Source: Desulfobacterales bacterium (lineage in GTDB: Bacteria > Desulfobacterota > Desulfobulbia > Desulfobulbales > BM004). From it: 64,000 nt of DNA. The DNA is taken from the NCBI GenBank assembly GCA_021647905.1, contig JAKITW010000001.1, positions 1 to 64,000 of the forward strand. The letters are read 5' to 3'. How positions within the stretch are numbered: position 1 is the stretch's first letter; every line of letters starts with the position of its first letter. The notes below the pieces were generated by a model. That model saw nothing but the letters and a program-made list of their open reading frames with translations, ran no database searches and was not told where the DNA came from. The position numbers and the translations under genes are program-made. Below are positions 1 to 62,621 of the stretch, piece after piece.

Positions 1-126
1 GCCGAAGTTGTTTCAAATTCCGCTTTTGCCGTCACGGCTGCGGCTCAGGGTCCGCTACACCGTTCGCTATAAGAAAACCCCTTTCCCGGTCCAACCTCAA
101 ACGTACGGGGTTTACCGAAACCTTAC
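1..126 (+). repeat. Dispersed repeat family 3, copy 1 (cut by window edge)
   Basis: This stretch is almost identical to 52652-52775 and, in reverse, to 62475-62599. It ends 10 bases from the stop codon of the minus-strand kamA-like gene. Read on the minus strand, its right part forms an AAACCCC / GGGGTTT stem followed by a T-rich stretch, so it could end kamA transcription. The left end is lost at the window edge; the other two copies extend about 22 bases further. Confidence 0.85.
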
Positions 127-136
127 GGGAAGGGGG

Positions 137-1930
137 TTAGTAATAGTACCAGATAGTCTTGTAATCCCTGGGGTTTTCGCCGATGGCATGCAGCCGTTTC
201 AGGTAGTCGAGAATGGGCACGTCCTCGCTGGTGTGGGTTGAGGTTATCTTGGAGATGTTTTTCTCCCAGGGATGGAATTCGTAGAGCCGGGCGCCGTCCG
301 GCAGGATCGAGATCAGGTCGCGGTGCTGGCTGGCGCGGAGATAACTCTTGCCCAGTCCGGGCACGTTGTAGACCGCCTCATCGGTGCGGGCCATGCCGGG
401 CAGGAGCCGGGCCTCTTCCTTTTGTTCCTGGAGCAGCCTGGCAATGGGCACCCGGTATTCAACGGTCTCCTCCTTGCCCTTGGTGTTGAATGTATAATAG
501 GGCTCGACCCCGATCAAGGCCAGCTTCCGGCGCAGGAAGGCCGCCTCGAACCGGCGGGAGACAAAAAAGGTGTAGACCAGCTGGTTGTAGACCGAGATGC
601 CCCGGCGCTTGAGCCGCTGTACCGCGGTCACGGTATCCGGAGTGATCTCGTAGGGATGTTGGATGTGGGTGACAACCGCCACCTGTCTTTTGCCCGGGAC
701 CAGATAAGCGGCAAGCAGGTCGGCCAGGGAGTCGGTGATCCGCATCGGCATGGTGACCAGGGTGCGGGAGCCGATCCGGATCCGTTCCACCGACGGAATC
801 GCGGCAAGCCCGTCCATGATCCGTCTGATATCCTTATCGGGCATGGCCAGGGGGTCGCCGCCGGTAAGGAGCACCTCGTGGATGGCCGGATGTTTTTTAA
901 TCCAGCGCAGGGCTTTTTTGATGGCCTCGTCCGAGGCCATGGCCCCGGGCTCCATGGCGTCGTTGATCTCCCAGTTACGCTGGCAGTAGACGCAGATCTG
1001 GGGACAGGTATTGAATGGCTTGAAGATACAGATGGCCGGGTAGCGGCGGGTGATGAGATCAGCGGGCGAGGTGTCGGCCTCACGCATGAAATCCAGACAT
1101 TTGCCCTTGCGGCCCGGAAGCCCCATCTGCTCCACATAACTGGGCGGCGGAATCACCTGGGCCCGGATGGCCCGGTCCCGTCCGGCCTTAAGGGCGTCGT
1201 CCATCAGCGACAGGTAATGCGGGGTAATCCCGAACGGCAGCTTTTGCGCCCGGGCAGACTCGATCGCCTGTCGTTCGGAATCGGACAGCTTGAGCAGTTG
1301 GTTGATCAACTCCGGGTCGCGGAGCACGTTGTCGGCCTGCCACTGCCAGTTGTGCCAGTCTGTTTTGTCGGCCTTGAGCGTTTTCAGGATCCGGGCTCGC
1401 CGTTTTTCACGGCGCAGGACAGCCTTGTCCGCCAGGCCCGACTGAAATCTGGCCTTCTGCGCCTCGACCTCGATCGAGAGTTCGTCCAACTGGCGCGACC
1501 GTTCAATGGCCGCCTTTCTGCCCTTGAGCCGGGTCGGCACCAGGTGGAGATCCACCAGTTTGCGGCCCGGACCTCTGCCTTGGAGGCCCAGAAAGAGGTA
1601 GAGCAGTTCGGCATAGAATGCCGGGGTAAGATCCGGGCGCGGTTTGTCCCGGGCAATGTCGCGGATCGCCTCGGCCACCGAGAATCCGGCCCGGTCTTCC
1701 GAACGGCGGGCCAGGATCCGGTTCAGCACGTCGGCGCAGTCCCGCACCCGGATAATGGAGCCCTCGGAAAATGAGTCGTAGTCGTTAAAGGTAGCAAAGG
1801 CGACCCGGTGGGCATGCCGGGAAAGGGCCTGGCGGAGATCGTCGACATTTTCCGAGTTGCGGGCCAGGGCGAAAATTTCCCGGGCCTTTGATATAAGGTG
1901 TTCAGGAGTGTACATTGCCGGATTAAGCAT
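137..1930 (-). CDS. KamA family radical SAM protein (lysine 2,3-aminomutase-like)
   Basis: About 597 residues. The radical SAM cluster motif CPQICVYC (CxxxCxxC) lies near residue 308, and a VPGLGKS segment near residue 525 sits where lysine 2,3-aminomutases hold the PLP-binding lysine (PGGGGK). Family members shift an amino group using SAM, a 4Fe-4S cluster and PLP; the substrate here is unknown. The protein is much longer than EpmB, with a roughly 200-residue N-terminal extension typical of the long KamA-like group. I chose the ATG at 1930 because AGAAGG lies 8 bases upstream. The open frame runs on to 2203, but that part reads like non-coding sequence. No partner gene is adjacent. Confidence 0.85.
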   Translation of the reverse strand: MLNPAMYTPEHLISKAREIFALARNSENVDDLRQALSRHAHRVAFATFNDYDSFSEGSIIRVRDCADVLNRILARRSEDRAGFSVAEAIRDIARDKPRPDLTPAFYAELLYLFLGLQGRGPGRKLVDLHLVPTRLKGRKAAIERSRQLDELSIEVEAQKARFQSGLADKAVLRREKRRARILKTLKADKTDWHNWQWQADNVLRDPELINQLLKLSDSERQAIESARAQKLPFGITPHYLSLMDDALKAGRDRAIRAQVIPPPSYVEQMGLPGRKGKCLDFMREADTSPADLITRRYPAICIFKPFNTCPQICVYCQRNWEINDAMEPGAMASDEAIKKALRWIKKHPAIHEVLLTGGDPLAMPDKDIRRIMDGLAAIPSVERIRIGSRTLVTMPMRITDSLADLLAAYLVPGKRQVAVVTHIQHPYEITPDTVTAVQRLKRRGISVYNQLVYTFFVSRRFEAAFLRRKLALIGVEPYYTFNTKGKEETVEYRVPIARLLQEQKEEARLLPGMARTDEAVYNVPGLGKSYLRASQHRDLISILPDGARLYEFHPWEKNISKITSTHTSEDVPILDYLKRLHAIGENPRDYKTIWYYY

Positions 1931-2452
1931 ACGTATAACCTTCTGTTGCACATGCCTGGGTAGGGGCGCCGCTGAGGACGGCAACCAAGCCCAGCCGCTG
2001 ATTATAAACGACAGCGGTCGTAATTGATCGTTCAGGACCGTTGGTCCGGGAGGTTTGGGAAGGTTTTTCCCAAAAAAAACGCTTTTTTGGTCTGCAACAA
2101 AAAAATATACCGTATTTTGATGCAACTGACAACCCGGGTTGGATTGAGGCTGAGATCCAAAGGGGACTCCGGCGGCTCGGTTGCTTGCCGGTTGCTCCTT
2201 CAACGCGCCAGGGCATGACGTTTTTGTAAAGGGTTGCCTTGAATCGAGGAGAGCGGAAACAGCGGGTTGGGCCGCATCTCATTGGCGTGGATTTTACGAG
2301 TACCAGGCGGTCTCAAAACGGATCTCTTCTGGTAAGGCTTTGACATTCCTTTTGGGATGGATACAATGGCGATCAAGCCGGTGCGGGGGTTACTGGTCTT
2401 GACGATCATCATTCATGCCCCGTGATCAGTTACCAATGAAGAGGGGAGGGAT
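1931..2452. other. Intergenic region between kamA-like gene and DUF502 gene
   Basis: Divergent gap of about 520 bases. It probably carries the kamA promoter: ATTATA at 2001-2006 is a consensus TATAAT on the minus strand, though I see no good -35 box. A TTTGGGAA/TTCCCAAA hairpin lies at about 2054-2076, without a T-tail on either strand. The right end holds a short inverted repeat (2388-2434) that recurs at 31436-31479. I see no convincing gene here. Confidence 0.5.
2388..2434 (+). repeat. Short inverted repeat, copy 1 (GGTTACTGGTC ... GATCAGTTACC)
   Basis: Arms of 11 bases match at 9 positions around a roughly 25-base loop containing GACGATCATCATTCATGCCC. A close relative, with arm changes, lies at 31436-31479. 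Both copies are preceded by TGCGGGG and stand upstream of plus-strand genes. Function unknown. Confidence 0.5.
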
Positions 2453-5441: not shown

Positions 5442-5899
5442 ATTTCAGGGATCAGAAGTCAGAGGTCAGAGGTCAGAGGTCAGATACTACACCAGTATAA
5501 CTTGCGTGCCGTCCCCTGTCACCTGTCTTCCGCTTGCCGGCCCGGGTCCGGCCGGGCTGGTTGCTAACGGCAATTTTTTGTTTGTTTTTCTGCCGGGATT
5601 GGATATAATCAAACATTTTACGTCTGCCGCTGTTGTTGCGGACCGGGCAGGGCTTACCCTTCCTGCCGCCAGTTGCGCACAATCTTTTTTTTCGGGTAAT
5701 CTCCTGGGCGCCTATAAAGCGGAAATGCGAGCCAGATTCGCCATAGATATTCAAACCCTCCATACGCGCCTGAACACCAGGCCCTCAATTTCCATGGTCT
5801 TATTCTCTGCCAATGGTTCTTCGGCAGGCAACGCCTTGGACTCCACTGGGCCGGTCCGGACCACTGCCGCCCGCAATATGATTAAAGGAGCGACCTTTC
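5442..5899. other. Divergent intergenic region between malQ and the sigma factor gene
   Basis: 458 bases. It holds a heptamer tract AGAGGTC repeated about four times (5451-5486), a GC-rich inverted repeat TTGCCG...CGGCAATTTTTT at about 5534-5579, a plus-strand promoter at 5582-5609, and a long leader of about 290 bases before the sigma factor start. A GGCAGG/CCTGCC hairpin lies around 5647-5669. I see no open frame with a convincing ribosome binding site. Confidence 0.5.
5582..5609 (+). promoter_or_regulatory. Probable sigma-70 promoter of the sigma factor gene
   Basis: TATAAT at 5604-5609 is a perfect -10 box, and TTGTTT at 5582-5587 is a fair -35 box with a 16-base spacer. It points towards the sigma factor gene and would give a 5' leader of about 285 bases. 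Confidence 0.5.
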
Positions 5900-7413: not shown

Positions 7414-8508
<1,095 letters not shown>

Positions 8509-8707
8509 GTCAGGGGACAGATGACAGAGGACAGAGGACAGAGGACAGTGAAAAAAACAGTGCTGAGTAACGAGCAATGAGTTGGAGCCAGATAACAGAT
8601 GATGGTGGAAAAAGTTGATAGTTATTTGTTAATGGTAACAACATGTTATAATCTTTCTCAGCACTCAGCACTCAGCACTCAGCACTCAGCACTCAGCACT
8701 CAGCACC
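8509..8707 (+). repeat. Heptamer-repeat hairpin locus between mqnE and mqnC
   Basis: It starts with GGACAGA-type heptamers (about 8515-8550), then AGTGCTGAGTAACGAG, then a core of about 65 bases, then seven units of CAGCACT (about 8658-8707). The AGTGCTGAG part is the reverse complement of the final heptamers, so the transcript could fold back. From about 8594 on, it is nearly identical (about two mismatches in the core) to 17571-17688 upstream of purC. Confidence 0.85.
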
Positions 8708-12837: not shown

Positions 12838-13409
12838 GCGGGTTGGAAAAAAAAATAATCCTGGCCATAACCGGTGCCAGCGGCTCCCTGTATGCGCGGG
12901 AGTTTGCCCGGCTGATGCAGGAGGGGCTCGGGGTGGAGGTGCACGGGATCGTCTCCGATGCCGGCCGCAAGGTAATGGACCTGGAGCTTGGCTGCTCCCC
13001 CGAGGATCTGGGCGATGCGGTCACGGCCTGGTATCCGGTTGATAATTTTGCCGCGGCCATGGCCAGCGGCTCCAGCCGGTTCGACGCCATGGTGGTGCTG
13101 CCCTGTTCCATGGGCACCCTGGCGGCCATTGCCAGCGGCATCTCCGCCAATCTGATCCACCGGGCCGCGGACGTGATGCTCAAGGAGCGGCGGCCCCTGC
13201 TGCTGGCGGTTCGGGAGACCCCGTTCAACCGTACCCATATCAGGAACATGCTGGCAGCCCACGAGGCCGGCGCTGTGATCTGCCCGCCCATGCCCGCCTT
13301 TTACCATCACCCGCGGGACCTGACCGAGATGGCCCGTTTCTTTGCCGGCCGGCTCGGGGACCTCCTCGGTCTGGAGGTCCCGCTCAATAACCGCTGGAAA
13401 GGGGCATGA
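12834..13409 (+). CDS. ubiX: UbiX-like flavin prenyltransferase
   Basis: 191 residues from the ATG in the ATGA overlap with menG. UbiX enzymes make prenylated FMN, the cofactor of UbiD-type decarboxylases. The family pattern is visible: AITGASGSLYAREF at the N-terminus, PCSMGTLAAIASG, and RPLLLAVRETPFNRTHIRNM. In futalosine organisms a UbiD-like enzyme (MqnL) decarboxylates dihydroxynaphthoate and needs this cofactor; no ubiD-like gene is in the window. It is followed by a heptamer-repeat tract before the prenyltransferase gene. Confidence 0.9.
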   Translation: MSGLEKKIILAITGASGSLYAREFARLMQEGLGVEVHGIVSDAGRKVMDLELGCSPEDLGDAVTAWYPVDNFAAAMASGSSRFDAMVVLPCSMGTLAAIASGISANLIHRAADVMLKERRPLLLAVRETPFNRTHIRNMLAAHEAGAVICPPMPAFYHHPRDLTEMARFFAGRLGDLLGLEVPLNNRWKGA

Positions 13410-13475
13410 CAGAAGACAGAGGACAGAGGACGGAAGACAGAAGACGGAAGACAGAGGGCAGAGGACAAAAGAATG
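13409..13475 (+). repeat. Heptamer-repeat tract (GACAGAG/GAAGACA type)
   Basis: About nine degenerate seven-base units of the pattern RGAAGAC/AGAGGAC follow the ubiX stop codon directly. They belong to the same family as the tracts at 8515, 15370 and 51542. Only one arm is present here; I see no complementary arm nearby. Confidence 0.75.
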
Positions 13476-13521
13476 AGTGCTGAATTCAAAAAATATCCCT
13501 TTCACCGGAACCCGGTTACCG

Positions 13522-14387: not shown

Positions 14388-15431
14388 ATGACCATGGACC
14401 TGAACCAGGAGAAAGTCGGCAAAAAGAAAAAGAACTGGTTGCCCCAGGTGCTGCGCTTTGTGGTCAGCTTCGGCGCCATCGGCCTGGTTTTTTATCTGTT
14501 CCGGGCACAGCTGCCGGCAGTGTTCAACCATCTCGCTACCGTGGAGCCGCGGTTTTTCTGCATGGCCGTGGCGACCTATCTGGGCGGCCTTGTCTCCACC
14601 GCGTTTCGCCTCCAACTGGTGTTCAAGGCCCAGGACACCCGGATATCCCTGGGCAATGCCTATTATGTGAACATCATTGCCCTGTTTTTCAATAATGTGC
14701 TTCCCTCCTCCCTGGGCGGCGAGATGGTCAAGGCCTATTATCTCTATCGCAACACCAATCGCAGCCTGGTCGCCTTCAGCGCGGTCCTGGTCGACCGGCT
14801 GTTCGGCCTGGCCACCCTGGCGTTGATCGGCGCGGCCGCGGTGCTGTTCTTTGACAGAAGCCTGGTGCCGCCCCGGATTCTGGGCAGCCTGGGGGTGATC
14901 ATCGTTGTTACCTGTGTGGCCGCGTTCATCCTTTTCAACCAGCGGATGGCCCGGGTGTTAAGCACTGCCCGGGTCCCCCTGGTCCCGCTCTTTATCCTGG
15001 AGAAACTTCGCCAGATCTATCTGGCCATGCACCATTACCGGGGCCGACGGGAGATCGTGGCCAGCTGTTTCCTGCTTACCATCATCGGCCAGGTCTCATA
15101 CGTGGCGACAACCTATCTCCTGGCCCGTGGCCTGGGACTTGACATTCCGTTTTCCTTGTTTTTTTTCCTGGTCCCCATTCTCCTGATGATCACCGTGGCC
15201 CCGTCGGTGAACGGGATCGGGGTCCGGGAGGCGACCTTTCTCTTTCTGCTTGCCAACTATACCACCCCGGACAAGGCCCTGGCCCTGTCGCTGCTCACCA
15301 CCTTTTTTCTGATCTTTGTCGGCCTGGGCGGCGGGGTGGTATATGCCTTTAAGGGCGGGCTGAGGGGGACGGATGACAGAAGACGGATGACAGAGGACAG
15401 GGGACAGAGGACAGAGGACGGTGGGCGGTGA
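14388..15431 (+). CDS. Flippase-like integral membrane protein (UPF0104 / LPG synthase TM domain family)
   Basis: 347 residues with about eight hydrophobic segments. NNVLPSSLGGEMVKAYYLYR and the APSVNGIGVREATF region near residue 280 match the lysylphosphatidylglycerol synthase TM region / AglD-like family. Members include lipid flippase-like proteins of unknown substrate. It may be the last gene of the menaquinone cluster, 14 bases behind mqnP, though no link to quinones is known. An alternative start is ATG 14394. The last 20 or so residues (from GTDDRR) are encoded by a heptamer-repeat tract and are probably a recent, functionless tail. Confidence 0.8.
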   Translation: MTMDLNQEKVGKKKKNWLPQVLRFVVSFGAIGLVFYLFRAQLPAVFNHLATVEPRFFCMAVATYLGGLVSTAFRLQLVFKAQDTRISLGNAYYVNIIALFFNNVLPSSLGGEMVKAYYLYRNTNRSLVAFSAVLVDRLFGLATLALIGAAAVLFFDRSLVPPRILGSLGVIIVVTCVAAFILFNQRMARVLSTARVPLVPLFILEKLRQIYLAMHHYRGRREIVASCFLLTIIGQVSYVATTYLLARGLGLDIPFSLFFFLVPILLMITVAPSVNGIGVREATFLFLLANYTTPDKALALSLLTTFFLIFVGLGGGVVYAFKGGLRGTDDRRRMTEDRGQRTEDGGR

Positions 15432-15522
15432 AAAAAGTTAATAGTTATCAGTTAAATGGTAACGGCGTGTTAAAATCTCTCACCAATAACCATTAACCAT
15501 TAACCAATAACTATTAACTATT
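15370..15522 (+). repeat. Heptamer-repeat hairpin locus overlapping a gene end
   Basis: GACAGAG-type heptamers (about 15370-15422) lie inside the 3' end of the flippase-like gene. Beyond them GTTAATAGTTATCAGTTAAATGG (15437 on) pairs with a run of ACCATTA/ACCAATA/ACTATTA heptamers at 15482-15518, forming a long imperfect hairpin. The core GTTAATAGTTAT...GGTAAC recurs at 8616 and 17594. Confidence 0.8.
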
Positions 15523-28670: not shown

Positions 28671-28713
28671 GGCTGGATCGCTCTTCTTGTCCTGCTTTTA
28701 CGGTGGCTATTAT

Positions 28714-28817
28714 TGTCGGTCTCGCAACAACCCGCTCGACGGACGTGATTCGTCTTGTAACTTGTTGATTTTATTGGGTGGCATTTGAAGCCTTTCGGGT
28801 TGTTACGAGTTCATCAT
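28714..28817 (+). repeat. Dispersed repeat family 1, copy b (short form, inside wsp operon)
   Basis: About 104 bases from TGTCGGTCTCG to GAGTTCATCAT, with the AACAACCCG / CGGGTTGTT arms intact. Its right end touches the stop codon of the wspB-like gene at 28817, so it fills the space between wspB and wspC. Confidence 0.85.
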
Positions 28818-29266
28818 TATTGAAAAAGCTTGCAGATTTCCTGGCCCGGGAGCATTTTTTTCAAGTCGAACCACTGAACCATCTTGTCCCTGGCCGACTC
28901 GGTCCCGTGGTGTTGATACAGGGCCTCGTCCATCAACACCCCTGACGGGGGTATCTCGGCCCGGTCGCTTTTCACCGCTTCCGTTACCTGGCCGGCGATC
29001 AGCCCCAGGGTGCTGGTCCTGCTGCCGGTGGTCGGGTAATGGACCAGGATGATCCGGCTGCTCAACATGATCTCGCAAGGTTTTTTTATCAGTAACCGGC
29101 AGAGATCGATCACCGGGACCGGTCTGCCGTGGTAGTCCATCAGGCCGGCGACGTAGTCCGGGGCCAGCGGGATCTCCTTGACCTTGACCAGGGGGACGAC
29201 CTCCACTATCTGTTCAGCGGTCAAGGCATAGCGGCCGTCGCCGATGTTAAACAGGAGGAGCAGCAT
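28817..29266 (-). CDS. wspB: CheW-like adaptor, WspB-like
   Basis: 149 residues forming a single CheW domain: [18 protein letters not shown] at the start, [21 protein letters not shown] in the middle, and [12 protein letters not shown]. It should bridge the WspA receptor and the WspE kinase. It overlaps the 3' end of the receptor gene by 20 bases, with GAGGACGAGG as a probable ribosome binding site. The stop codon lies at the edge of a family 1 repeat, so the C-terminal residues (GQEICKLFQ) are just outside the repeat. Confidence 0.88.
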
Positions 29267-30999: not shown

Positions 31000-31139
31000 T
31001 GTCGGTCTCGCGGCAACCGCGTGTCTGTCTGCCCATCGTCTGACGTTTTGTTGAAGGACAATGGGCGGCTGTCACATTGTAGGTTGTTGATTTCGTTCAG
31101 TGGCATTTGAAGCATTTCGGGTTGTTACGGGTTCATCAT
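31000..31139 (+). repeat. Dispersed repeat family 1, copy c (long form)
   Basis: About 140 bases from TGTCGGTCTCG to GGGTTCATCAT. It carries an extra segment of about 31 bases (CATCGTCTGACGTTTTGTTG and on) that only copy e shares; this segment forms a GCCCAT/ATGGGC hairpin. It lies 80 bases upstream of wspA. Confidence 0.85.
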
Positions 31140-31142
31140 ATT

Positions 31143-31246
31143 TGTCGGTCTCGCAACAACCCGCGAGACGGACGTGTGTCACGTTGTAAGTTGTTGGTTT
31201 CACTGGGTGGCATTTGAAGCATTTCGGGTTGTTACGGGTTCATCAT
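31143..31246 (+). repeat. Dispersed repeat family 1, copy d (short form)
   Basis: About 104 bases in direct tandem with copy c, separated by three bases. It has intact AACAACCCG / CGGGTTGTT arms, and CGGGTTGTTACGGGTTCATC is identical to the end of copy c. Confidence 0.87.
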
Positions 31247-31435
31247 ATTTGACGGGGCAGCCCTTGTGAATAAGCGGAACAAGGATAGCCCGGACAGGGG
31301 AAGGGTGGAGTTCCCGCCCTGGATCGGCGCGCGGCCACCACTGGTCCGCCACGTAACTCTTTCAAGCCATAACATAACCATGAAATATACTACATGCCGA
31401 AGCGAAGTCAATTGATTTGTGTGGTACTTTTGCGG

Positions 31436-31544: not shown

Positions 31545-31698
31545 GTAACCGTTCACCAGGGGTTACAGATTTACGGAAACCACCGGCCGGTAAGCGTTTA
31601 CCAGTGCCACGGATTCGTGCAAGCAGGCTGGCGAATCCATAGTATGCCTATGTGAGCCGGCCTGATCGTGCGAAGATGGGGTGCTGGTGAACGCTGAC
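31545..31698 (+). repeat. Dispersed repeat family 2, copy B (154-base form)
   Basis: It runs from GTAACCGTTCACCAG to CTGGTGAACGCTGAC and differs from copy D (52326-52479) at only about seven positions. The inner block GTGAGCCGGCCTGATCG (31652-31668) is identical in copies C and D. It ends 88 bases before the DsbA-like gene. Confidence 0.9.
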
Positions 31699-40277: not shown

Positions 40278-40406
40278 CGGGTTCGTAACAATCCCAAACG
40301 CTTCAAATGACACCCAACTAAGCCAACAACTTACAAGGTGACACACGTCCGTTGTCTTCTAACAATACATCAGACGATTGACACGCGGGTTGTTGCGAGA
40401 CCGACA
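40278..40406 (-). repeat. Dispersed repeat family 1, copy e (long form, reverse orientation)
   Basis: It begins at the base after the nitroreductase stop codon and runs to TGTCGG (complement) at 40406. On the minus strand it reads TGTCGGTCTCG, CAACAACCCG, then the extra segment AATCGTCTGATGTATTG also seen in copy c, then TTGTAAGTTGTTGG, CATTTGAAGCG, and GATTGTTACG. Confidence 0.85.
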
Positions 40407-40453
40407 ATATTGACGGGCCCGTTGGTTTCAACTGTGAGAAGAGGAGAGCAATA

Positions 40454-51521: not shown

Positions 51522-51541
51522 AGGTTCAGAAATCAGAAGCC

Positions 51542-51610
51542 GGAATACAGAGGATGGAGGACAGAGGACCTGCCTTCGCATAAAGCTTCGGTGGGCAGGC
51601 AGAGGACGGA
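51542..51610 (+). repeat. Heptamer-repeat tract with CTTCG palindrome
   Basis: Two tracts of ACAGAGG/AGGACAG units flank CCTGCCTTCGC and GCTTCGGTGGGCAGG, which form a palindrome (about 51570-51598). The same combination of heptamers and CTTCG palindrome is found at 17490-17570. It lies directly upstream of the GT-C-like gene. Confidence 0.72.
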
Positions 51611-51762: not shown

Positions 51763-52233
51763 TTAATATATCTGGTCGCTGGACAGGCCGAGCACGGCCT
51801 TGTCCAGCTTTTTCCGGCTGATGATCCCGTAGCCGCGCACAATCCGCATCTCAAAGCTGTTGCTGGCCTTCAACTCCTCGCGGACATGGGAGGAGAGCAC
51901 CTTTTTCATCATCGCGGTCTCGTGATCGAGCACATACCGGTTCATGGCCAGGGAAAACCCGTTGATATCGTCATACACGGTTATCACGATCCGGTTAAGC
52001 CTGGTCACCTTGCCGTAATGGGCCATCAGTTCACGGCGGGAGTCGAACTCCTCCTCGTTCATCCACAGGCCCAGGTAGGTCTCCGTGATCTTGAAACCGT
52101 GTTTGTGGGTGATCATATAAGACCAGAGCTTGTAGTTCTCCAGCTCAATGAAGCGGATGGAGGTCCGGTTGTCCCTGGTCTGCAGCAGACATTTCACCAG
52201 CTTCTGGGACTTGATATGGCTTGGGTCAATCAT
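51763..52233 (-). CDS. Protein of unknown function between the pilin and msh operon
   Basis: 156 residues, with no signal peptide or membrane segment and no domain I recognise. It is fairly rich in charged residues and seems to hold a mixed alpha/beta fold (IRFIELENYKLWSYMITHKHGFKITETYLGLWMN, then RNRIVITVYDD-like strands). A start with weak context at 52233 encodes MIDPSHIKSQKLVKCLL. Both neighbours are repeat elements (family 2 copies on both sides). Its place suggests a regulatory or accessory role for the pilus, but this is a guess. Confidence 0.65.
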   Translation of the reverse strand: MIDPSHIKSQKLVKCLLQTRDNRTSIRFIELENYKLWSYMITHKHGFKITETYLGLWMNEEEFDSRRELMAHYGKVTRLNRIVITVYDDINGFSLAMNRYVLDHETAMMKKVLSSHVREELKASNSFEMRIVRGYGIISRKKLDKAVLGLSSDQIY

Positions 52234-52325
52234 GACAACCTCTAAAACTAAATTTTTTACCGCGGTGAATCCAGGCTTTTCGGAGTCTCATTTAATTCGC
52301 TTACCTGCGAGTTTATCTTTCTCTT

Positions 52326-52479
52326 GTAACCGTTCACCAGGGGTTACAAATTTACGGAAACCACCGGCCTGTAAGCGTTTACCAGGGCCACGGATTCGTG
52401 CAAGCAGGCCGGCGAATCTATAGTATGCCTATGTGAGCCGGCCTGATCGTGCGAAGATGGGGTGCTGGTGAACGCTTAC
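52326..52479 (+). repeat. Dispersed repeat family 2, copy D (154-base form)
   Basis: Nearly identical to copy B (31545-31698), with about seven differences. The terminal arms GTAACCGTTCACCAG / CTGGTGAACGCTTAC pair with one mismatch. The central GTGAGCCGGCCTGATCG lies at 52433-52449. It lies 92 bases upstream of the unknown 156-residue gene's start codon. Confidence 0.92.
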
Positions 52480-52509
52480 TTTCTCTTTATATCCGTCATT
52501 CGTAAACAT

Positions 52510-52776
52510 TCAGTAAACCCCTCCTATCGGGAAAGGGGTCTTCTTCTACCGACGGCCGCTCCATTGAGAAGGGCTGACCTGTTCATAAACAGGCTATCAA
52601 GCAGGAACTCGCTTCGCCGCGGCGGCGATTCGGAAGCCATAAGCATATCCTGCCGAAGTTGTTTCAATTTCCGCTTTTGCCGTCACGGCCGCGGCTCAGG
52701 GTCCGCTACACCGTTCGGTATAAGAAAACCCCTTTCCCGGTCCAACCTCAAACGTACGGGGTTTATCGAAACCTTA
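52510..52776 (+). repeat. Dispersed repeat family 3, copy 2, with inverted partial left end
   Basis: The core (52630-52776) matches copies 1 and 3. At 52512-52553 a shortened inverted copy of the right end occurs (GTAAACCCC...GGGAAAGGGGTCTTCTT, then CTACCGACGG). The whole is therefore a roughly 265-base element with inverted ends of about 43-56 bases. It ends 14 bases before the mshG stop codon. Between the ends lie a CCTGTT/AACAGG hairpin and CGCCGCGGCGGCG. Confidence 0.85.
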
Positions 52777-52790
52777 GCGTCATTCGGTCT

Positions 52791-54035
52791 TCAGCCCCGC
52801 ATCACGTTCATCATGTCCCACATCGGCATGAAGATGGCCAGGGCAATCAGCCCGACCACACAGCCCATGACCAGCAGCAGGAGCGGCTCGATCAGGGTAG
52901 CCAGGTTCTTGATGGTGTAGTTGGTCTCGGTATCGTAATAATCAGCCACCTTGTCGAGCAGTGCATCCAGTTCCCCTGTTTCCTCGCCCACCGCCACCAT
53001 CTGCACCACCATGGCCGGGAAATGGGGATGCTTGGCCATGGCGATGTTAAGCGGCACCCCATCTTCAACGTCGTCCAGCATCCGGCCGGCCATGCGGAAA
53101 AGAAGCAGGTTGTCCAGGGCGCTGGCAGCCAGCCGGAGTCCGTTGACGATATCAATGCCGCTTTTTCCCAGTACCGCCAGGACCCGGCAGAAGCGGGAGA
53201 GGTAGATCTTTTTCGAGAGTTCGCCGATGATCGGCAGCCGCAGGAGTAACCGGTCGCGGGCCAGGACAACGGTTTCGTACTGCAGGGCATAATGCCAGGC
53301 CATTGCCGCCAGGGCCGCGGCCACGCAGATCCCCAGGAAGTTATGGGACATGAAGTTGCTGGCTGCGATCATGACCTGGGTGGGCAGGGGCAGCGCGGTC
53401 CTGGAGCTGGCAAAGAGGGTGACGAATTTCGGCACCACAAAGGTCATCAGAAAGGCCACCGCGCCGACAATGGCCATCACCACCAGCTTGGGATAGCGGG
53501 TCGCGGTCCTGATCCGCTCGCGGATGTCTTTTTCGTTTTCATAGAGATCAGCCAGGTACTCGAAGGAGTTGTTCAGGTTGCCGGTCTCTTCGCCGATCCG
53601 GACAATATTGATGAACAGCCGGTTAAAGGTCCGGGGAAAGAGGCTGAAGGCCTCACTCATGCTGGAGCCGGCTTCCAGTTCCGCGCCAATGGTTGTCAGC
53701 AGCTTGCCCAGTTTGGGGTTGAGGGTCTGCCTGGTCATGATCTCCAGGGCCTGCAGGACCGCAACCCCGGCCGAGAGCATGGTGCCGAGCTGGCGGCAGA
53801 AGAGGATCAGGTCATCGATGGTCACCCCGCCGAACCGGTCGGCAAGGGAGAGTTTGAGTCTGGTGAAAATGTCTGCATCGCCGCCAGCCTCCTGTTCCGC
53901 GACAATGTCGATCCGGATCGGGGTCATGTTGTTTTCAACCAGCCAGGTCTCCACCTGATGGACGATTTCAGCGGACCGTTTTCCGCTGATCTGTTTTCCC
54001 GAGGCGTTGATCGCCTGGTAACGGAAAGTCGGCAT
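52791..54035 (-). CDS. mshG: MSHA pilus inner-membrane platform protein (GspF family)
   Basis: 414 residues with two GspF domains. MPTFRYQAINASGKQISGKRSAEI is the N-terminus; LILFCRQLGTMLSAGVAVLQALEIM is the first GspF signature, and FCRVLAVLGKSGIDIVNGLRL the second. Three membrane segments lie near 175-195, 230-250 and 385-408. It would anchor the MshE motor. It follows mshE by three bases. It is not closely similar to the PilC encoded at 36073, so the two serve different pili. The family 3 repeat behind it may end transcription. Confidence 0.92.
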   Translation of the reverse strand: MPTFRYQAINASGKQISGKRSAEIVHQVETWLVENNMTPIRIDIVAEQEAGGDADIFTRLKLSLADRFGGVTIDDLILFCRQLGTMLSAGVAVLQALEIMTRQTLNPKLGKLLTTIGAELEAGSSMSEAFSLFPRTFNRLFINIVRIGEETGNLNNSFEYLADLYENEKDIRERIRTATRYPKLVVMAIVGAVAFLMTFVVPKFVTLFASSRTALPLPTQVMIAASNFMSHNFLGICVAAALAAMAWHYALQYETVVLARDRLLLRLPIIGELSKKIYLSRFCRVLAVLGKSGIDIVNGLRLAASALDNLLLFRMAGRMLDDVEDGVPLNIAMAKHPHFPAMVVQMVAVGEETGELDALLDKVADYYDTETNYTIKNLATLIEPLLLLVMGCVVGLIALAIFMPMWDMMNVMRG

Positions 54036-62454: not shown

Positions 62455-62474
62455 TAACCGTCATGCCAATAAAG

Positions 62475-62621
62475 TAAGATTTCGGTAAACCCCGTACGTT
62501 TGAGGTTGGACCGGGAAAGGGGTTTTCTTATAGCGAACGGTGTAGCGGACCCTGAGCCGCAGCCGTGACGGCAAAAGCGGAATTTGAAACAACTTCGGCA
62601 TGATATGCTTATGGATTCCGA
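62475..62621 (-). repeat. Dispersed repeat family 3, copy 3 (reverse orientation)
   Basis: Full 147-base copy. On the minus strand it begins TCGGAATCCATAAGC three bases after the stop codon of the histidine kinase gene and ends TCGGTAAAC (complement) near 62475. The sequence is almost the same as copies 1 and 2. In this copy the kinase gene enters the repeat from its left end, while kamA and mshG enter copies 1 and 2 from the right. Confidence 0.9.

What the first reader, a model, noticed from the sequence alone, without database searches (positions are those of the whole stretch)
52510..52776. Family 3: 147-base repeat that can grow into a 265-base MITE-like element
Copies at 1-126, 52630-52776 and 62475-62621 are almost identical, pointing to recent spread or gene conversion. 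At 52512-52553 a shortened inverted copy of the right end appears, so copy 2 is flanked by inverted ends of about 43-56 bases, the structure of a miniature inverted-repeat element. All three copies stand directly behind minus-strand genes, within about 15 bases of the stop codon, and read through one side they offer an AAACCCC/GGGGTTT hairpin with a T-rich tail. They might be portable terminators.
Basis: seen in the sequence. Interest (0 to 1): 0.62.

Follow-up and report, generated by a model that had tools for sequence, protein, structure and literature searches.

The report
Transcription-oriented IS66-type MITE, ~110 copies

Summary
The repeats are real, but the unit was mis-bounded. The element is 276 bp (window 52502-52777), starts GTAA, ends TTAC (TTAG in this copy), has imperfect inverted ends and a perfect 8-bp target duplication, CGTCATTC. 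"147-base" copy 3 is a truncated copy in the opposite orientation; copy 1 is cut by the contig end. The genome holds about 110 copies. Of 42 full copies with both flanks, 24 have an exact 8-bp duplication (0.02 expected). The ends score as IS66 ends, and the target duplications match IS66. No IS66 transposase is in the assembly, and the element was found in no other genome searched. It is therefore a species-private, non-autonomous IS66-type MITE.

Three unexpected properties emerged. (1) Among interior copies between genes of one direction, 26 of 31 put the right end towards the upstream gene's stop; the bias follows transcription, not replication. (2) Thirteen common variant sites are in near linkage equilibrium down to 6 bp: 43 haplotypes in 44 full copies. 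(3) Target sites have a weak symmetric preference (A at +27 on both sides).

"Portable terminator" remains unproven: terminator-like scores are best in the favoured direction but well below the two known terminators run as controls, and copy 3 contradicts it.

The parts
52502..52777 (+). Full-length IS66-type MITE, copy 2 (276 bp)
   Evidence: Ends GTAA...TTAG (consensus GTAA...TTAC); 44 full-length interior relatives in the genome; exact 8-bp target duplication
52494..52501 (.). 8-bp target-site duplication CGTCATTC, left
   Evidence: identical to 52778-52785
52778..52785 (.). 8-bp target-site duplication CGTCATTC, right
   Evidence: identical to 52494-52501
52502..52521 (+). Left terminal inverted repeat GTAAACATTCAGTAAACCCC
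   Evidence: 16 of 20 bases equal an IS66 right end of a relative (G036, L110); scores 18.1 bits on an IS66-end matrix, exceeded among 2,907 GTAA sites only by two variants of the element itself
52758..52777 (-). Right terminal inverted repeat GTAAGGTTTCGGTAAACCCC in the consensus (this copy CTAAGGTTTCGATAAACCCC)
   Evidence: inverted counterpart of the left end; 13.2 bits on the same matrix, 10 of 2,907 sites as high or higher, most of them variants of this end
52528..52550 (+). Left subterminal arm CGGGAAAGGGGTCTTCTTCTACC
   Evidence: inverted counterpart of 52716-52739; the whole element folds back on itself (z -4.8 and -6.5)
52716..52739 (-).
1..126 (+). Copy 1: element positions 151-276, cut by the start of contig C1
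   Evidence: right end 10 bp from the stop of the radical-SAM (kamA-like) gene 137-2203(-)
62474..62621 (-). Copy 3: truncated element (positions 129-276), opposite orientation, left part and left target duplication lost
51763..52790 (-). Host locus: T2SS-F/mshG-like gene (stop at 52791) and the next gene 51763-52233(-), separated by 557 bp that hold two MITEs
   Evidence: In a relative (L299, RIFOXYD12_FULL_57_12) the end of the same gene and the ortholog of the next (57% identical) are about 83 bp apart with no element

Best explanation
The repeat is a non-autonomous miniature transposon of IS66 type: a 276-bp foldback element with GTAA...TTAC ends, moved in trans by an IS66-family transposase that cuts with an 8-bp stagger. 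SHOWN: ends, target duplications, about 110 copies, restriction to this genome among those searched, absence from an orthologous gap in a relative, no copy inside a predicted gene. SHOWN: copies between genes of one direction mostly point their right end at the upstream stop codon and their left end at the next start, a bias tied to transcription and not to replication. INFERRED: IS66 transposase as the mobiliser (from ends and stagger; no transposase found here). INFERRED: the bias is a survival filter. In the favoured direction the transcript runs into the better terminator-like hairpins and the more stable foldback RNA (-121 against -103 kcal/mol), so such copies insulate or end the upstream transcript and are tolerated or useful, while the reverse orientation or insertion into promoters and genes is removed. 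INFERRED: frequent ectopic recombination between copies keeps shuffling their shared variants.
For: 8-bp target duplications exact in 24 of 42 full copies (expected 0.02). IS66-like ends and 8-bp duplications in IS66 elements of relatives; published IS66 hallmarks are inverted repeats starting GTAAGCG and 8-bp duplications (PMC11946415, PMC3281130). Copy number. Private to this genome: 0 of 57 relatives for the element; core pattern absent from 257 others of the order except one hit with 2 mismatches; no match in plasmids, viral contigs or genome contigs. Orthologous gap without the element. Orientation: tandem gaps 26:5 (p = 2e-4); right end within 100 bp of a stop 40 v left end 12; left end within 100 bp of a start 28 v right end 4; contig-end copies, a separate set, left 39:18 (p = 0.008), right 36:26 (p = 0.25). 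Against the GC-skew leading strand 30:25; bias 12:4 for leading and 14:1 for lagging genes. Variant shuffling.
Against: No IS66 transposase in the assembly, though collapsed short contigs may be missing. The functional step is weak: isolated end hairpins are not stronger than shuffles, best terminator score -16.6, and copy 3 is reversed. No expression data. The gene caller is my own script. The right-end half of the replication set is not significant.
Confidence: 0.85

Rival explanations
1. Portable terminator in the strict sense: the right-end AAACCCC/GGGGTTT hairpin with its T-rich tail is an intrinsic terminator that the element carries to gene ends.
For: Right end faces upstream stops, median 65 bp, often 0-40 bp; best terminator-like scores lie in the favoured direction, -16.6 and -26.0 against -34.4 in the other, where 60 shuffles reach at most -21.2.
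Against: Known terminators scored +29 and +36 with the same code; entry hairpin z = +0.6; copy 3 is reversed; no transcript data.
Confidence: 0.3
2. Purely selfish MITE with no host role. The orientation bias only reflects removal of harmful insertions, such as a hairpin placed in front of a start codon.
For: No copy inside a predicted gene; right ends are rare within 100 bp of starts (4 against 28 left ends); few insertions in divergent gaps (7 of 42) although these make up about 40% of intergenic bases in the window.
Against: Does not by itself explain why the right end crowds stop codons.
Confidence: 0.4
3. Insertion bias: the transposition complex senses transcription (supercoiling, RNA polymerase or native 3'-end structure) and inserts in one orientation.
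For: The bias follows transcription whichever way replication runs; target choice is not random (symmetric A at +27).
Against: The detected target preference is symmetric and cannot orient an insertion; none of 21 reconstructed pre-insertion sites holds a strong native terminator.
Confidence: 0.25
4. The variant shuffling is an assembly artefact of collapsed repeats.
For: 103 catalogued pieces end at contig ends and contigs typically overlap the element by 124-127 bp, suggesting a k=127 short-read assembly.
Against: Linkage equilibrium holds between sites 6-30 bp apart and among sites that one 127-base word joins to the unique flank (right half mean r2 0.008, permutation 0.010; left half 0.021, slightly above permutation 0.010; no-recombination coalescent 0.43, minimum 0.11).
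Confidence: 0.12

Closest known systems
IS66-family insertion sequences
   Same: Ends starting GTAA with an AACCCC-like tail and 8-bp target duplications; relatives of this genome carry such elements with exact 8-bp duplications
   Different: No tnpA/tnpB/tnpC; 276 bp instead of about 2.5 kb; no interior similarity to relatives' IS66 elements; fifth to seventh bases differ from GTAAGCG
MITEAba12 (Acinetobacter; PMC6382973)
   Same: Short non-autonomous IS-derived element, many copies, target duplications in about 40%
   Different: 9-bp duplications (ISAba12); its authors found no orientation preference and no predicted terminator, whereas this family is strongly oriented to transcription
MITECca01 (Cardinium; PMC9769881)
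   Same: Lineage-specific burst (169 copies there), mostly intergenic
   Different: IS982-derived with intact parental copies in the same genome; no parental transposase was found here

Membership tests
MITE (non-autonomous miniature inverted-repeat element) | Short element with terminal inverted repeats and no transposase gene | tested here: met
   276 bp, inverted ends, whole-element foldback z -4.8/-6.5, too short for a transposase
MITE (non-autonomous miniature inverted-repeat element) | Target-site duplication of constant length | tested here: met
   8 bp exact in 24 of 42 full copies, 3 more with one mismatch; 0.02 expected
MITE (non-autonomous miniature inverted-repeat element) | Dispersed multi-copy and absent from an orthologous gap of a relative | tested here: met
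   about 110 copies; relative's 83-bp gap without it
IS66-derived | Ends begin GTAA (usually GTAAGCG) | tested here: met
   GTAA at both ends; matrix from 13 IS66 ends of relatives: left end exceeded only by its own variants among 2,907 GTAA sites. The strict GTAAGCG heptamer is not present in the consensus; hallmark from PMC11946415
IS66-derived | 8-bp target duplication | tested here: met
   PMC11946415 and PMC3281130 give 8 bp for IS66
IS66-derived | Mobilising IS66 transposase (PF03050) in the same genome | tested here: not met
   No match in the assembly; 24 of 58 genomes in the relatives search have it. Short collapsed contigs could have been dropped, so absence is not proof; a MITE can outlive its partner, so this is not a defining feature of the MITE itself
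IS66-derived | Transposition by IS66 TnpABC | not testable with these tools
   needs a transposition assay
Rho-independent terminator | Stable GC-rich hairpin followed by a U-tract with a score in the range of known terminators | tested here: not met
   best -16.6 against +29 (rrnB T1) and +36 (trp attenuator); entry hairpin z +0.6
Rho-independent terminator | Transcripts end at the element | not testable with these tools
   no RNA data
Structured RNA family (Rfam) | Match to a known family at the gathering score | tested here: not met
   only one tRNA in the whole window

The most novel reading that the evidence does not exclude
A MITE family that has become a genome-wide set of directional transcription insulators at gene ends, whose roughly 110 copies behave as one freely recombining sequence population (linkage equilibrium within tens of bases), so that a selected terminator or RNA-processing module is shared and shuffled across the chromosome.
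Probability: 0.2. Interest if true: 0.75.

Novelty: new member of a known kind. Interest (0 to 1): 0.45.

Why it matters
The element is an ordinary kind of parasite, but its genome-wide statistics are not ordinary. A clear orientation bias with respect to transcription, independent of replication, turns 'do bacterial MITEs serve as portable 3'-end signals?' into a question that one RNA-end-mapping experiment could answer. The near absence of linkage between variants a few bases apart implies that ectopic recombination between short dispersed repeats far outruns mutation in this bacterium, which bears on how repeat families stay uniform. The element also explains a large share of the breaks in the assembly.

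Tried and rejected
Replication-strand origin of the bias: rejected (30:25). Outward promoter at the left end: no sigma-70-like site and no -10-like enrichment at a fixed distance outside the left end that is not matched on the right; the only recurrent signal, A at +27, is symmetric on both sides. Insertion into strong native terminators: none in 21 reconstructed sites, but only 15 of 178 control gene ends have one, so the test has little power. Internal homology to IS66 elements of relatives: none. Known RNA family: none. Plasmid, viral or other genome carriers: none. Orientation bias in the neighbouring GTAAGCG-type MITE family as a control: 9:4, too few to judge. Age difference between orientation classes: none evident (mean identity to consensus 97.7 against 97.8). 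Literature searches did not turn up a described bacterial MITE with this orientation bias, but most subscription papers are not in the library.

Full report
Observation. Reading beyond them shows that the unit is larger: copy 2 begins at 52502 with GTAAACATTCAG and ends at 52777, and the bases just outside, CGTCATTC at 52494-52501 and 52778-52785, are the same. Copy 1 is cut by the start of contig C1. Copy 3 (62474-62621, minus orientation) lacks the left 128 bases. So the 147-base form is a fragment, not a core that grows.

Genome-wide copies. The window's genome (2.73 Mb, 118 contigs) gives 124 matches to the left end with up to 3 mismatches, and 233 to the shared subterminal arm, which occurs at both ends. 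From the stretches fetched I catalogued 164 pieces: 61 interior, 44 of them full length, and 103 at contig ends; 101 left and 106 right termini. That implies about 110 elements, over 1% of the genome, and explains many of the assembly breaks. Full copies are 96-99% identical to the consensus (median 97.5%).

Transposon hallmarks. Of 42 full copies with both flanks, 24 have an exact 8-bp duplication and 3 more have one mismatch, against 0.02 exact expected; other lengths give at most 2. Some copies without one have exchanged partners: the left flank of the C8 copy matches the right flank of the C4 copy, and the C86 left flank matches the C8 right flank, as expected from recombination between copies or from misassembly. 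In a relative (L299) the end of the same mshG-like gene and the ortholog of the next gene (57% identity) are about 83 bp apart; here the gap is 557 bp and holds this element and a second one.

Which transposase. GTAA ends with 8-bp duplications are hallmarks of IS66 (PMC11946415; PMC3281130). IS66 elements of relatives have ends such as GTAAGCGCTCAGCAAACCCC, 16 of 20 bases equal to this left end, and three of them carry exact 8-bp duplications. On a matrix built from 13 such ends, the left end is exceeded among 2,907 GTAA sites only by two variants of itself. The transposase family PF03050 is absent from the assembly, so the mobiliser is lost or unassembled; IS66 mobilisation is strongly indicated, not demonstrated. 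Element or core was not found in 57 relatives, in 257 other genomes of the order except one 2-mismatch core hit, in plasmids or viral contigs, or in genome contigs. The host is an unnamed Desulfobacterota lineage, judged from its nearest protein relatives.

Orientation. In tandem gaps 26 copies point the right end to the upstream stop and the left end to the next start, 5 the other way (p = 2e-4). The contig-end copies are a separate set: left ends face starts 39:18 (p = 0.008); right ends face stops 36:26 (not significant alone). Within 100 bp, stops are faced by 40 right and 12 left ends, starts by 28 left and 4 right ends. GC skew, informative here, shows no bias to replication (30:25), and the transcription bias holds for both leading and lagging genes (12:4 and 14:1). 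The bias was noticed after the fact in the first 42 copies; the contig-end set is the only semi-independent check.

Terminator question. A terminator score gives -16.6 and -26.0 in the favoured direction, -34.4 in the other, at most -21.2 in 60 shuffles, and +29 and +36 for two known terminators. The whole element as RNA folds strongly, more so in the favoured direction (-121.5, z -6.5; -102.8, z -4.8). A weak or structure-dependent effect on transcript ends is therefore possible, but the strict terminator claim is not supported, and copy 3 is reversed.

Shuffled variants. Thirteen sites carry two common alleles. Apart from the adjacent pair 120/121 (always AA or GG) and a moderate link between 26 and 245, they are close to unlinked: mean r2 0.017 without the adjacent pair, against 0.0145 expected from sample size, with all four combinations at sites 6 bp apart (167/173); 43 haplotypes occur in 44 full copies, and the other variants are mostly singletons. 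In the right half r2 equals permutation (0.008 v 0.010); in the left half it is slightly higher (0.021 v 0.010, reached by 2% of permutations). A coalescent without recombination gives 0.43 (minimum 0.11). The likeliest cause is frequent ectopic recombination or gene conversion, before or after insertion. Site-specific recurrent mutation is less likely, because the alleles are specific and include a linked dinucleotide.

Structural variants and targets. 65-68 bp derivatives made of little more than the two ends lie at C34 (exact 8-bp duplication) and C60 (7 of 8), and a similar one at C86. The C67 copy has its interior inverted between the arms. The C22 copy is interrupted by a 175-bp GTAA...TTAC element with its own duplication CTCAATGG. 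Unique flanks show A at position 27 outside the element in 53% (left) and 49% (right), against about a quarter elsewhere: a weak symmetric target preference about 46 bp apart.

Verdict. A new, species-private IS66-type MITE family: ordinary in kind, unusual in its orientation to transcription and its near-free recombination. The mechanism of the orientation bias is open: selection (with or without a useful end-of-transcript effect) is favoured over insertion bias, but not proven.

Noticed in passing
window 52326-52479 (TSD AAGAGAAA at 52480-52487 and 52318-52325); related 31545-31698; C22:5930-6104 and about 25 other places: A second GTAA...TTAC MITE family (ends GTAACCGTTCACC / GTAAGCGTTCACCAGC, about 150-175 bp) with 8-bp target duplications in nearly all full copies, also IS66-like, directly beside copy 2 and sometimes nested in the first family.
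   Followed up: partly
C22:5714-6172 and C39:25667-25820: Two loci carry the first MITE interrupted by the second at the same inner site (CTCAATGG), so a composite of two MITEs may have moved or been converted as one unit.
   Followed up: no
C4:5256, C8:46392, C86:1-127: Exchanged 8-bp target duplications among three copies, suggesting MITE-mediated rearrangement or misassembly.
   Followed up: partly
flanks of all copies in the genome: Symmetric preference for A 27 bases outside both ends of the element (about 46 bp apart in the empty target).
   Followed up: partly
window 28713-28823, 31035-31252, 40284-40422: Another dispersed repeat family (GTCGGTCTCGCAACAACCCGCGAGACGGACGTG...), near which several copies of this MITE have inserted elsewhere in the genome.
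   Followed up: no
window 5446-5491, 8497-8570, 13396-13483, 15363-15436, 51527-51572: Short tandem runs of a 7-base unit (CAGAGGA-like) between or at the ends of genes.
   Followed up: no
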